Shown here: one piece after another, positions 6,688 to 56,547 of the stretch | Position numbering within the stretch: position 1 is the stretch's first letter | How the letters are laid out: the number at the start of each line of letters is the position of its first letter | NCBI GenBank assembly: GCA_013360215.1 | Contig: JABWCP010000005.1 | Location: 1 to 64,000, forward strand | Direction of reading: 5' to 3' | DNA length: 64,000 bases | From: a bacterium | Lineage (GTDB): Bacteria > CLD3 > SB21 | Notes under the pieces: model-generated | The model's input: the letters and a program-made list of their open reading frames with translations, nothing else | Told to the model about the DNA's origin: nothing | Database searches by the model: none | Made by a program: the position numbers and the translations under genes

Positions 6688-7311
6688 CTAAACCCGTAAA
6701 CCATTGAGCACCAGCATGGTGACCTGCGCTTTACGGCGTTCTATAAATTCATTGAATTGTTTTTCGTCCATACTGAAAAAAAACTCGACCATCGGTTTGG
6801 CAACAAAAGGAAAAACACATTGGCTTAAAATACTAAGAAGCAATTGCTCCGGCTCGATCGGGATATAGCGTCCATCTTCGATGCCTTCGCGTATTTGACG
6901 TTTGATGACATCTAGCTTAGGTACTATACCGCGTTCCTCAAATATGCGCCGCATACGCTCGGGGTTGGTCGTCATTTCATGTAAAACGAAACCGGGAATG
7001 AAGCGATTGTTTTTTATAAAGTCGATATAGGTGTGAATCAGTTTTTCGATTTTTTGCTCCAGTGGTGCTTCGGAATTGATCATATGTAAAACGAGAGGAA
7101 AAAAACGTGAGATCGCCTCTTCAAAAACAGCTTGAAACAAACGGTCTTTGCTGCGGTAATAATAATGCAAAAGTGCTTTATTGATGCCGGCTTCGTCGGC
7201 TATTTCCTGCATCCGGGCGCCGTCAAAGCCTCGACGATGAAATATGGAACGAGCGGCTTTGATGATCTTGTTTTCTGCTGAATCTTGTTCTGTTTTTATG
7301 TTTTGATCCAT
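6688..7311 (-). CDS. TetR/AcrR-family repressor of the efflux operon
   Basis: 207 residues. The N-terminal helix-turn-helix (about residues 14-60) has the TetR pattern: IFHRRGFDGARMQEIADEAG then INKALLHYYYRSKDRLF. The C-terminal ligand-binding domain is helical and resembles the YbiH/CecR type, which controls ybhGFSR in E. coli. First gene of the operon, followed after 3 bp by the HlyD-like gene, so it is likely autoregulated through the inverted repeat at 7355-7372 just upstream. The inducer cannot be told from sequence. Confidence 0.9.
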   Translation of the reverse strand: MDQNIKTEQDSAENKIIKAARSIFHRRGFDGARMQEIADEAGINKALLHYYYRSKDRLFQAVFEEAISRFFPLVLHMINSEAPLEQKIEKLIHTYIDFIKNNRFIPGFVLHEMTTNPERMRRIFEERGIVPKLDVIKRQIREGIEDGRYIPIEPEQLLLSILSQCVFPFVAKPMVEFFFSMDEKQFNEFIERRKAQVTMLVLNGLRV

Positions 7312-7354
7312 TTTAAATATTGATAATAATAAACTTAAATTATTAATTAGATAG

Positions 7355-7372
7355 TTTAACTAAACAGTTAAA
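7355..7372. promoter_or_regulatory. Putative TetR operator
   Basis: Inverted repeat TTTAAC-N6-GTTAAA, 44 bp upstream of the TetR start codon, in a very AT-rich divergent intergenic region. Half-site spacing and position fit an autoregulatory TetR-family operator. Assignment is by position and symmetry only. Confidence 0.5.
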
Positions 7373-7384
7373 TATATATTATAA

Positions 7385-7396
7385 ACACAGCTGTGT
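7385..7396. repeat. 12-bp perfect palindrome
   Basis: acacagctgtgt, a perfect palindrome in the divergent region between the TetR gene and the sensor-kinase gene. It may be a second regulator site for either gene; no family can be assigned. Confidence 0.35.
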
Positions 7397-7567
7397 CAAG
7401 TTTTTTATGTAGCAAACGCTAAAAAACTGTCTTTAGTGTTTATGTTTAATAAAACAATTTAGAAAATTCTATGAATCGGTCTTTCAAGTATAAAACATAA
7501 ATTTTTATGGAAAATGAGGGATATAAATTATTATAATACCCCTATCCAAACCACTTTAAAACTTCTC

Positions 7568-53019: not shown

Positions 53020-53865
53020 TTAACCCAAATAGTGCCGTAATACATGACTTCGCGAAGTGTGGCGCAGACGGCGAATCGCTTTTTCTTTGATTTGACGGAC
53101 ACGCTCACGCGTTAACTGAAAACGTATACCTATTTCTTCCAATGTCATCGGATGATCATTTTCGAGGCCGAAGTACAAACGTATCACTTCCGACTCACGT
53201 GCAGATAAACTGTCGAGCGCACGTTCGATTTCAATTTTCAAAGACTCGTTGACAAGATCGTGATCCGGCGGCGCCTGCTGCTCGTTTTCGATGACATCAA
53301 TCAGCGTATTATTATCTGAATCGTAAATCGGTTCATCAACCGAGATGTGCCGTCCGGACATTTGTAACGTATCGTGTACTTCGAGCTCGGAAATTTCCAA
53401 CTGCTCCGCGATCTCTTCGGCACTGGGTTCACGCTCGAATTCCTGTACCAAATCACTATACACGCGACCGATTTTATTAAGCGTTCCGATTTTATTGAGC
53501 GGAATACGAACGACGCGAGATTGTTCGGCAAGCGCCTGAAGTATGGCCTGACGAATCCACCATACGGCATAAGAAATAAACTTGAATCCGCGCGTTTCAT
53601 CAAATCGTTTCGCGGCTTTGATCAGTCCGATATTACCTTCGTTGATAAGGTCATTGAGAGAGAGGCCTTGACCTTGATATTGTTTGGCTACGCTGACGAC
53701 AAAACGGAGATTGGCTTTGGTCAGATGTTCGAGCGCCCGTTCATCACCCTCGCGTATGCGCTGTGCCAGCGCGATCTCTTCTTCGGATGTCAGGAGCGGT
53801 ACCGCGCCGATTTCCTGCAGATACTTGTCAATGAGATCATTATTGTGTTCGACATAATGAGCCAT
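53020..53865 (-). CDS. Primary sigma-70 factor, short RpoD/SigA
   Basis: 281 residues from the ATG at 53865, with aagaagg 5 bp upstream (a TTG at 53871 adds two residues). Region 1.2 [20 protein letters not shown]; regions 2.1-2.4 with [17 protein letters not shown] and [20 protein letters not shown]; region 3; region 4.2 [20 protein letters not shown]. No region 1.1 is present, as in Bacteroidetes and related housekeeping sigma factors. It directs transcription of most genes. Located 32 bp downstream of the second EutN gene. Confidence 0.95.
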
Positions 53866-53897
53866 AGACAACCTTCTTTCATTTTGTTGTACGATGG

Positions 53898-54161
53898 TTA
53901 ACGATCTATACGGTCTACAATTCCTATAATTGTTGCATCGGTAGGCGCTTTACGATCCAGAGGGATCGGCGCCTCACCCGATGTTACATAATAAACTAAT
54001 TCATTAGGCTGTCCGGCGCCTACCGAGTCGGTCGCCACGATCGGGCCGCCGACATGCTTCAATTCTGAATCCACCGGCTGGATGATCTGTAAACGGCACC
54101 CTTCGATAGAAGGATGTTTTTTAGTAGCCCAAACCGTGCCGATGATGCGCGCCATATTCAT
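53898..54161 (-). CDS. EutN/CcmL-family microcompartment vertex protein (copy 2)
   Basis: 87 residues, the usual size of a BMC-P pentamer subunit that caps the vertices of bacterial microcompartments. Family patterns: [19 protein letters not shown] near the N-terminus, [20 protein letters not shown] in the middle, and [15 protein letters not shown] at the end. Either of two ATGs (54161 or 54155) may be used; the first overlaps the cupin stop by 4 bp (ATGA). No hexameric shell gene or encapsulated enzyme is in the window. Confidence 0.93.
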
Positions 54162-54523
54162 ATATGCTGCAAATTCTCGCGTGTGCGTTCGTTTTTGAGA
54201 TTCCCGGTATTTACGGTCGTTGCCGGCTCAAAAAGCATGATCTCCGTTTCTACGTCAGAAACCGGCCGGTGTTCCACACCGCGCGGCACGATGATAAATT
54301 CACCCGGATTGATGATTTCCGTTCGATCGCGAAATTCCATTTTCAAACAACCGCGAACCACGTAAAACATTTCGTCCTCATGATCATGATGATGCCAAAC
54401 AAATTCACCAGAAACTTTGACTAACTTGACATGCTGACCATTCAGTTCGCCCACGATACGCGGATGCCATGTATCGGAAAAAGTTTCAAACTTATCCGCG
54501 AGATTAATTTTATTTGAGATCAA
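54158..54523 (-). CDS. Cupin-fold protein between two EutN genes
   Basis: 121 residues, a single small cupin. Both cupin motifs are visible: first [20 protein letters not shown] with three candidate His and Glu metal ligands, then [19 protein letters not shown] with the third His. Likely binds a divalent metal; the substrate is unknown. It overlaps both flanking EutN genes by 4 bp (ATGA at both ends), so the three proteins should be made in fixed ratio. Could be a mutarotase-, isomerase- or ligand-sensor-like protein. Confidence 0.9.
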
Positions 54524-54789
54524 GGATGTACTTCCATTTTATCAACAATAGCCATAATAACCGCATCAACCGGCCGATTTTCTGTCGCTTCGGTTTGTCG
54601 TGCCGAACTGCCGGTGCAATACAGCACCACTTCACCGACGCCGGCCCCGACGGAATCGGCCGCCACCACGAAAGCGTCTTTTTCTTTGTAGTCCAATCCT
54701 ATACTGCGCACAATCAACAGCTTCACGCCCGTGAGTTTTTGGTCTTTCCGTGTGGCCCATACAGAACCTATAACTTTACCTAGAACCAT
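54520..54789 (-). CDS. EutN/CcmL-family microcompartment vertex protein (copy 1)
   Basis: 89 residues. It is the more canonical copy: [59 protein letters not shown] and [15 protein letters not shown] match the BMC-P (Pfam EutN_CcmL) family. First of the three-gene overlap set; it starts 6 bp after the GAF/GGDEF gene. The two copies differ widely in sequence, so they may form separate pentamers or a mixed one. Confidence 0.94.
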
Positions 54790-54795
54790 ATATTC

Positions 54796-56547
54796 CTAAT
54801 CTGCGCATGCAATGCGGCGCTCATTAAGTTTTTTAGCATTCACTAAAGCAACATTAGCACGGTGCATCAGTGCGTCGGCTTCAGTACCATCCGTACCATA
54901 TGTAACCACACCGACCGTTGCGGTCAACGGAATCTCTTCATCGCCGGAATGAATCACCGCCGATTCGAGCGCGTTGAGTATCCGGCCTGCACATTCTACC
55001 GCTTCTTTCCTTTTACTTTCTACAAGTAACACCCCAAATCGGTCGTGACTCAAACGAGCAAGGTTATCAATAAGCCGTATCCCATTTTTTAAAATTTCTG
55101 TTATTTTTTCAAGCGCTAAATCACCGGCTTCTACACCGAAAGCTTCATAAATATTCTTGACATAGTCTACCTGAAAAACCAGAACACTAAACGAAGTTTC
55201 AAATCTTTTAGCGCGATGTATCTCGGACACGACGTTTTTCATAAACGTTTGTTCCTCCGTTGCCGTATTGCGTTCGCCTTCGTTTGCGTTTTTAGATAAA
55301 TGCTGATCCAGAGCGATACGCGCCAATGCGAGTCCTGCGCTATTGCAGGCGGTTTCAAGAAACTGCACTTCATACACATCGTATGCGTTTTTTTGGCCTT
55401 GTTCGATCACCAGCACACCAAAACAATGGTCCTGATCACAGATCGGGATGACCACGACGGAAGCAAGGTAATTCAATTCCAATTCGCTGTTTACCGAAGT
55501 CCGGTCAATGGATGTCACATCGGATATATAAAGCCGACGCCGTTTCGTCATAACTTTTTCGATCATCGTACCGTCAAGCCGAACCATAGATTCTTTATCG
55601 TATACCGCGCTGCCACCGGCCTCCGCCAATCGTATTTCCTCCGCGCCATGTCGCAGCCATATATGCATACGATCAAAACGAAGCGTGTTTTGAATCTGTT
55701 CTTTCAGGCAAATCATCGTTTGCGTTTCCATACCCGCAAGGCTCAGGCGCTCGCTAAATTCGCGTAAACTCTGGGAAAGGCGGCGGAGCTTGTTTTTCAT
55801 ATACACGCCGTCAATACTTTGAATAGACAAAAGTATGAGGCGTCCGTACTGCTTGATCGCGTCAAACTCCTGTTCGGTTAACGCCGTGTCCGTAATACGA
55901 TCCACGCCAAGGAGACCGAGCACAGCACCTTTTCGCATCAACGGAATAATCACCAAATGTTTAACGGGTACTGCGGTACGATAATACGGAACGGGCGTCG
56001 TACCGGGTTCGCGCAAATCCATAACAAGTGATTCCTTGGTTTGAATCACCTGATGAAACGGCGCATAATCGCCGTATCGAAACGATTTTTCAGGTATAAA
56101 ATCACGGCTTTCACTTCGGAAACTTTGCGGTAAACATTCGCCGCTATCGTCATGGCATAGATACAAAAAGGTAGAATGGGCTTGCAATGTATCGTGCATG
56201 ATAGCGATCACGCCATCCGCTGTCTGATTGAACATAAGCGAAGCCTGCGTATCATCCAGTATTTCCATCGCGTGATCTTCTTCGCGAACGATCGACCCGG
56301 AAGCGGTTTCCACGGTATGCGGGTGCGTGACGGGGCGTCGTATCGTATTGCCGGAGACTTTATATTTTTCAACCGGTTTTTCACGACGAGCGGCGATCCA
56401 TCGTGCAGCTATCACAAAGGCGGCCAGAACGACAGCACCCATGATCAATGTAATGGCCGTATTAAAAAAAACCGACGCGAGGATGACTCCCGAAATGAAA
56501 ACGAGGAGGAATGCCGAAATGCGCAGGACGTAGGAAGTAAAGGGCAT
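54796..56547 (-). CDS. Membrane GAF-domain protein with a degenerate GGDEF domain
   Basis: 583 residues. Two N-terminal membrane helices (about 8-28 and 31-50), a basic linker, GAF-like domain 1 (about 110-250), GAF-like domain 2 (about 275-415), and a C-terminal GGDEF fold (about 430-583). At the catalytic position the sequence reads RLSHDRFGVLL (residues 498-508) rather than RLGGDEF, so the signature is lost and the protein is unlikely to make cyclic di-GMP. It may bind GTP or be purely regulatory. It is encoded 116 bp after ptsI and 6 bp before the EutN trio. Confidence 0.88.
   Translation of the reverse strand: MPFTSYVLRISAFLLVFISGVILASVFFNTAITLIMGAVVLAAFVIAARWIAARREKPVEKYKVSGNTIRRPVTHPHTVETASGSIVREEDHAMEILDDTQASLMFNQTADGVIAIMHDTLQAHSTFLYLCHDDSGECLPQSFRSESRDFIPEKSFRYGDYAPFHQVIQTKESLVMDLREPGTTPVPYYRTAVPVKHLVIIPLMRKGAVLGLLGVDRITDTALTEQEFDAIKQYGRLILLSIQSIDGVYMKNKLRRLSQSLREFSERLSLAGMETQTMICLKEQIQNTLRFDRMHIWLRHGAEEIRLAEAGGSAVYDKESMVRLDGTMIEKVMTKRRRLYISDVTSIDRTSVNSELELNYLASVVVIPICDQDHCFGVLVIEQGQKNAYDVYEVQFLETACNSAGLALARIALDQHLSKNANEGERNTATEEQTFMKNVVSEIHRAKRFETSFSVLVFQVDYVKNIYEAFGVEAGDLALEKITEILKNGIRLIDNLARLSHDRFGVLLVESKRKEAVECAGRILNALESAVIHSGDEEIPLTATVGVVTYGTDGTEADALMHRANVALVNAKKLNERRIACAD

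What the first reader, a model, noticed from the sequence alone, without database searches (positions are those of the whole stretch)
53898..54789. EutN-cupin-EutN trio with no microcompartment shell genes around it
Two diverged pentameric vertex-type proteins (BMC-P) flank a small metal-site cupin, with ATGA overlaps at both joints, so the three are translated as a unit. Normal microcompartment loci also encode hexameric (BMC-H) and trimeric shell proteins and an enzyme core, and none is within 64 kb. The trio sits between a GAF/degenerate-GGDEF gene and the primary sigma factor. Inference: the EutN proteins may work outside a shell, for example as a pentameric scaffold for the cupin, or as a satellite that supplies vertices to a shell encoded elsewhere.
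Basis: partly seen in the sequence, partly recalled or inferred. Interest (0 to 1): 0.62.

Follow-up and report, generated by a model that had tools for sequence, protein, structure and literature searches.

The report
Scattered microcompartment vertex genes plus cupin
Two vertex genes of a bacterial protein shell sit far from the other shell genes because this lineage scatters its shell genes over at least five places in the genome (a layout already known as a "FRAG" microcompartment), and the small cupin gene between them looks like a chance arrival found only in this genome.

Summary
The trio is real: EutN (P1), cupin and EutN (P2) lie on the minus strand between a GAF/degenerate-GGDEF gene and an RpoD-type sigma gene. 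One joint is TTGA, the other ATGA. No hexamer gene is in the window, but the genome has two BMC-H genes, one tandem BMC-T and two further EutN genes on four other contigs. A tree puts P1, P2 and a distant P3 in three separate lineages, each found once in nearly every well-assembled genome examined: the "BMC-P triplet" of the published FRAG type, whose shell genes are scattered. Over 290 genomes EutN and BMC genes co-occur almost perfectly (77 both, 2 EutN only; one of these has masked flanks, the other is marginal). So P1 and P2 are ordinary satellite vertex genes.

The cupin is probably not part of the system. Five genomes of the same family have P1 and P2 as a pair without it. Its relatives occur in many phyla, often in genomes without EutN. 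In four sister genomes it sits between two xanthine-dehydrogenase-like subunit genes; here those two genes adjoin and the cupin lies between P1 and P2.

Best side lead: PduS and BMC-T sit inside a kynurenine-pathway cluster.

The parts
54520..54789 (-). EutN/CcmL BMC-P vertex protein P1, 89 aa; one member of a BMC-P triplet
   Evidence: PF03319 E 6e-31; closest solved chain 5v74 (EutN/CcmL), E 9.5e-28; 88% identical to the G002 orthologue; tree lineage P1; pN 0.05-0.10 against pS about 0.77
54158..54523 (-). Small single-domain cupin, 121 aa, TTG start, HxH...E...H metal-site residues; insertion specific to this genome
   Evidence: PF07883 E 1.6e-12; alignment A1; closest solved chain 3d82, a cupin of unknown function; no cupin between the pair in relatives
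53898..54161 (-). EutN/CcmL BMC-P vertex protein P2, 87 aa; second member of the BMC-P triplet
   Evidence: PF03319 E 1.5e-24; 83% identical to the G002 orthologue; tree lineage P2, support 97/94; pN 0.12-0.13 against pS about 0.85
54520..54523 (-). TTGA overlap joining the P1 stop and the cupin start (not ATGA)
   Evidence: sequence
54158..54161 (-). ATGA overlap joining the cupin stop and the P2 start
   Evidence: sequence
54796..56547 (-). GAF plus degenerate GGDEF protein, 583 aa; conserved upstream neighbour of the pair in the family
   Evidence: same order in G002 (L064), G003 (L065) and G006 (L068)
53020..53871 (-). RpoD-type sigma factor, 283 aa; conserved downstream neighbour of the pair in the family
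   Evidence: same order in G002, G005 and G006, 80-82% identity

Best explanation
P1 and P2 are ordinary BMC-P vertex subunits of a scattered (FRAG-type) bacterial microcompartment. Shown: the shell genes of this genome lie at five separate places (BMC-H pair on C14, BMC-T on C8, P3 on C1, P4 on C3, P1/P2 on C5), and P1, P2 and P3 belong to the three lineages that recur once each across microcompartment genomes. Inferred: each forms pentamers that cap vertices of one shell, made steadily because the genes sit inside housekeeping gene runs (rpoD; ndk-cinA-murA) and not in an inducible catabolic operon. The cupin is a common free-standing gene that entered between P1 and P2 in this lineage, so that it is translated with them; it is most likely not a shell part or specific cargo. 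The GGDEF-P1-P2-RpoD order is ancestral in the family.
For: Shell genes elsewhere in the genome. EutN and BMC presence agree in 284 of 290 genomes, Fisher p about 1e-62 with genomes treated as independent; of the two EutN-only genomes, G149 has masked sequence beside PduL- and DeoC-like genes and G227 is a marginal hit at E 9.8e-4. Four orthologous lineages P1-P4 in the tree. GGDEF-P1-P2-RpoD without cupin in G002, and the parts of it that the contigs hold in G003, G004, G005 and G006; ATGA overlap of P1 and P2 in G002. P3 in the ndk-cinA-P3-murA setting in family genomes. Purifying selection. Cupin relatives in 4 genomes that lack EutN and BMC (G014, G017, G024, G036) and in 80 named loci with no EutN within 3 kb. 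Reciprocal sites: cupin between xanthine-dehydrogenase-like large and FAD subunit genes in G001, G003, G005 and G006, the same two genes 42 bases apart without cupin in the window genome. FRAG type described by Sutter 2021 (PMC8217296).
Against: The FRAG subtype was not assigned with the published models; this genome has a fourth BMC-P (P4) besides the triplet. No encapsulated enzyme core was identified and PduL is absent, so that a working shell forms is inferred. The P1 (81/75) and P3 (90/80) lineages have only moderate support because the proteins are short. The overlapping frames do couple the cupin to the vertex genes, so a recruited role in this genus cannot be excluded.
Confidence: 0.88

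Rival explanations
1. The cupin has been recruited in this genus as a cargo or accessory of the microcompartment, and translational coupling keeps it at vertex stoichiometry.
For: TTGA and ATGA overlaps on both sides, intact reading frame and metal-site residues. EutQ, another cupin-family protein, belongs to ethanolamine microcompartment loci (Axen 2014, PMC4207490).
Against: No relative examined shares the arrangement; cupin relatives occur in genomes without any shell genes and away from EutN. It is not EutQ-like: no EutQ family among its Pfam hits.
Confidence: 0.08
2. P1 and P2 work outside a shell, for example as a pentameric scaffold for the cupin (one of the first reader's two readings).
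For: No shell hexamer gene lies within the window.
Against: Hexamer and trimer genes exist elsewhere in the genome; EutN without BMC genes is essentially absent across 290 genomes; P1 and P2 persist in relatives that lack the cupin at this site.
Confidence: 0.02
3. The shell genes are decaying remnants of a lost microcompartment, so P1 and P2 have no present role.
For: Scattered genes and no PduL-type core.
Against: Strong purifying selection and conserved positions of the shell genes across genera of the family.
Confidence: 0.02

Closest known systems
FRAG bacterial microcompartments (Sutter et al. 2021, PMC8217296)
   Same: Shell genes at up to six genomic places, BMC-P triplet, mostly remote from known enzymes; reported in Ignavibacteriae and related phyla and many candidate phyla
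   Different: A fourth BMC-P (P4) is present; a cupin gene lies between two triplet members; FRAG subtype not assigned
Satellite BMC loci (Axen et al. 2014, PMC4207490)
   Same: A locus with only PF03319 genes, insufficient for a shell, in a genome with other shell genes
   Different: The strict definition needs contiguous shell genes and a non-satellite BMC locus with both domains elsewhere; here every locus is partial
Haliangium ochraceum (HO) BMC-P
   Same: 5v74, the closest solved chain for both proteins, is an EutN/CcmL protein; that 5v74 is the HO shell is from memory; HO loci also carry the BMC-P triplet (PMC8217296)
   Different: HO shell genes are largely clustered in a main locus with an AldDh
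Cupin of 3d82 (Cupin 2, conserved barrel)
   Same: Best solved match to the cupin family, E 2.5e-44
   Different: No link to microcompartments known from this match; function unknown
EutQ cupin of ethanolamine microcompartments
   Same: A cupin-family protein belonging to microcompartment loci (PMC4207490)
   Different: The window cupin has no EutQ family hit

Membership tests
BMC-P (EutN/CcmL) vertex protein | PF03319 domain over the whole protein above the curated cut-off | tested here: met
   107.2 and 86.8 bits against cut-off 25, positions 1-83 of 83
BMC-P (EutN/CcmL) vertex protein | Forms pentamers that cap shell vertices | not testable with these tools
   Needs expression and structure; solved homologues include EutN and CcmL
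FRAG microcompartment | Shell genes dispersed over several genomic places | tested here: met
   Five contigs: C14, C8, C5, C1, C3
FRAG microcompartment | BMC-P triplet | tested here: met
   P1, P2, P3 in three separate lineages; mapping to the published gray and orange clades not done
FRAG microcompartment | Shell genes mostly remote from known enzymes, a few with a proximal AldDh | tested here: met
   P1/P2, P3, P4 and BMC-H lie among unrelated genes; BMC-T has an AldDh about 3 kb away
FRAG microcompartment | Grouping by the published shell-protein models (FRAG1-7) | not testable with these tools
   Those models are not in the libraries available
Satellite BMC locus (Axen 2014) | Only PF03319 or only PF00936 genes, contiguous | tested here: inconclusive
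   Only PF03319 here, but the two genes are separated by the cupin
Satellite BMC locus (Axen 2014) | At least one non-satellite BMC locus elsewhere in the genome | tested here: not met
   No contig holds both PF00936 and PF03319 genes
EutQ cupin | Match to the EutQ family | tested here: not met
   Only Cupin_2, Cupin_7, AraC_binding and Cupin_1 hits at E 0.001
3-hydroxyanthranilate 3,4-dioxygenase | PF06052 above cut-off | tested here: not met
   The genome's single 3-HAO match is on C4 at 135776-136225; the window cupin matches the NCBIfam model only weakly, 20.4 bits against 220

The most novel reading that the evidence does not exclude
Away from the trio: in three genera of this family, PduS and a PduT-like BMC-T sit between tryptophan 2,3-dioxygenase and downstream kynurenine-cluster genes including an aminomuconate/hydroxymuconate-semialdehyde-type dehydrogenase, so this FRAG shell may house the unstable semialdehyde steps of tryptophan ring cleavage, with electrons leaving through PduS and BMC-T. 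FRAG function is an open question in the literature.
Probability: 0.15. Interest if true: 0.6.

Novelty: new member of a known kind. Interest (0 to 1): 0.22.

Why it matters
It shows that a vertex-gene pair that looks orphaned in 64 kb is a normal piece of a scattered shell system, and that a cupin wedged between vertex genes is a lineage-specific insertion and not a new scaffold. It is also a caution that "no shell genes nearby" says little in FRAG genomes. The side lead, PduS and BMC-T inside a kynurenine cluster, bears on what FRAG shells do.

Tried and rejected
EutN acting without a shell: rejected on genome-wide co-occurrence. G149 as a true EutN-without-BMC genome: rejected, because sequence next to its EutN pair is masked and PduL- and DeoC-like genes stand beside it. 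Cupin as 3-hydroxyanthranilate dioxygenase: rejected, the real enzyme is on C4. Cupin as EutQ: no family hit. Conserved EutN-cupin-EutN order: none in the same-family genomes nor within 3 kb of 80 named cupin loci. Vertical descent of the cupin with the sister-genus copies: not decided; a clade with G001, G003, G005 and G006 is not rejected (p-AU 0.23), a clade with all seven family copies is (0.002). Tryptophan dioxygenase next to BMC genes outside the family: none evident from positions, and none at two loci read. Kynurenine plus microcompartment in the literature: no relevant paper.

Full report
The trio. On the minus strand P1 (54789-54520, EutN, 89 aa), a cupin (54523-54158, 121 aa) and P2 (54161-53898, EutN, 87 aa) follow a GAF/degenerate-GGDEF gene after 6 bases and precede a short RpoD-type sigma gene.

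Shell genes elsewhere. The genome (3.72 Mb, 56 contigs) has two adjacent BMC-H genes on C14, one tandem-domain BMC-T on C8, and four EutN genes: the two of the trio, one on C1 and one on C3. No contig carries both hexamer and vertex genes. In G003 and G006 of the same family the BMC-H pair and the P1/P2 pair are on one contig about 6.5 kb apart, with ribosomal and translation genes between.

Which vertex proteins these are. A tree of 50 EutN proteins gives four lineages for the window genome. P2 (support 97/94) and P4 (100/100) are well supported; P1 (81/75) and P3 (90/80) moderately. P1, P2 and P3 occur once each in the well-assembled genomes of the class and in others such as G020, G026, G033, G037 and G053; in G026 and G053 the three genes are adjacent. 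This is the "BMC-P triplet" described for FRAG and other types (Sutter 2021, PMC8217296). P4 was seen in the tree only in this family and G059. The fragmented genome G001 yielded only P3.

Co-occurrence. In 60 genomes the 19 with EutN are the same 19 with BMC. In 290 genomes 77 have both, 4 BMC only, 2 EutN only, 207 neither. Of the two, G149 has masked sequence right beside its EutN pair and PduL- and DeoC-like genes next to it, and G227 is a marginal hit. The Fisher p (about 1e-62) treats genomes as independent, which they are not, but the pattern spans many families.

Neighbourhood. G002 shows GGDEF-P1-P2-RpoD with P1 and P2 overlapping by ATGA and no cupin; G006 shows the same run, G003's contig ends after P2, G004 and G005 show the pair and the sigma gene. 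P3 sits in ndk-cinA-P3-murA in family genomes and P4 in another conserved run. P1 and P2 evolve under strong constraint (pN 0.05-0.13, pS 0.76-0.86). That these genes are expressed constitutively is an inference from their neighbours.

The cupin. In 60 genomes good relatives occur in four genomes with no EutN or BMC gene (G014, G017, G024, G036). In G001, G003, G005 and G006 the cupin sits between a xanthine-dehydrogenase-like large subunit gene and the FAD subunit gene (these two enzyme names are from sequence, not from a family search); in the window genome those two genes are 42 bases apart with no cupin. The tree does not settle whether the cupin moved within the genome or was replaced by a foreign copy.

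Side lead. The C8 locus reads RpiB, tryptophan 2,3-dioxygenase, PduS/RnfC-like, BMC-T, SDR, SUFU-like, a 294-aa protein, and an aldehyde dehydrogenase whose best model is 2-hydroxymuconic semialdehyde dehydrogenase, below its cut-off. The rest of the kynurenine pathway is on C4 (kynurenine monooxygenase and the decarboxylase are named from sequence and context). The PduS-BMC-T pair is in the same setting in G001, G003 and G006 and is missing from the otherwise intact cluster of G002, and from RpiB-TDO-SDR in G004, so the pathway does not need it. The PduT resemblance rests on a weak model match (TIGR02526, 122 bits against 250), and the pore cysteine (SICSGK) is from sequence and memory. An actinobacterial microcompartment for 2-aminophenol uses related chemistry (PMC10470539).

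Verdict. An ordinary satellite pair of a scattered microcompartment with a lineage-specific cupin insertion.

Noticed in passing
L010:6532-14552 (G000:C8): PduS-like and BMC-T genes lie between tryptophan 2,3-dioxygenase and SDR/aldehyde-dehydrogenase genes; same setting in G001, G003 and G006, absent from the cluster in G002 and G004.
   Followed up: partly
L205:9770-16387 (G000:C4): Kynurenine-pathway cluster: 3-HAO, amidohydrolase (probable ACMSD), cyclase-family (probable formamidase), kynureninase, FAD monooxygenase (probable KMO).
   Followed up: partly
L218:463-3780 (G000:C13): Xanthine-dehydrogenase-like large and FAD subunit genes adjoin here, while four sister genomes carry the cupin between them.
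   Followed up: yes
L012:9632-9886 (G000:C3): A fourth BMC-P (P4), seen in the tree only in this family and G059, outside the triplet.
   Followed up: partly
L100 about 7016-7560 (G037:C17): An RpiB-like gene lies between the P1 and P2 vertex genes of another genome, a second case of a gene wedged between vertex genes.
   Followed up: no
G000 genome: No PduL-type phosphotransacylase (PF06130) was found, so the usual metabolosome core is lacking.
   Followed up: partly
L216:7138-13998 (G149:C1): Sequence beside an EutN pair is masked, which makes this genome look as if it had EutN without BMC genes.
   Followed up: yes
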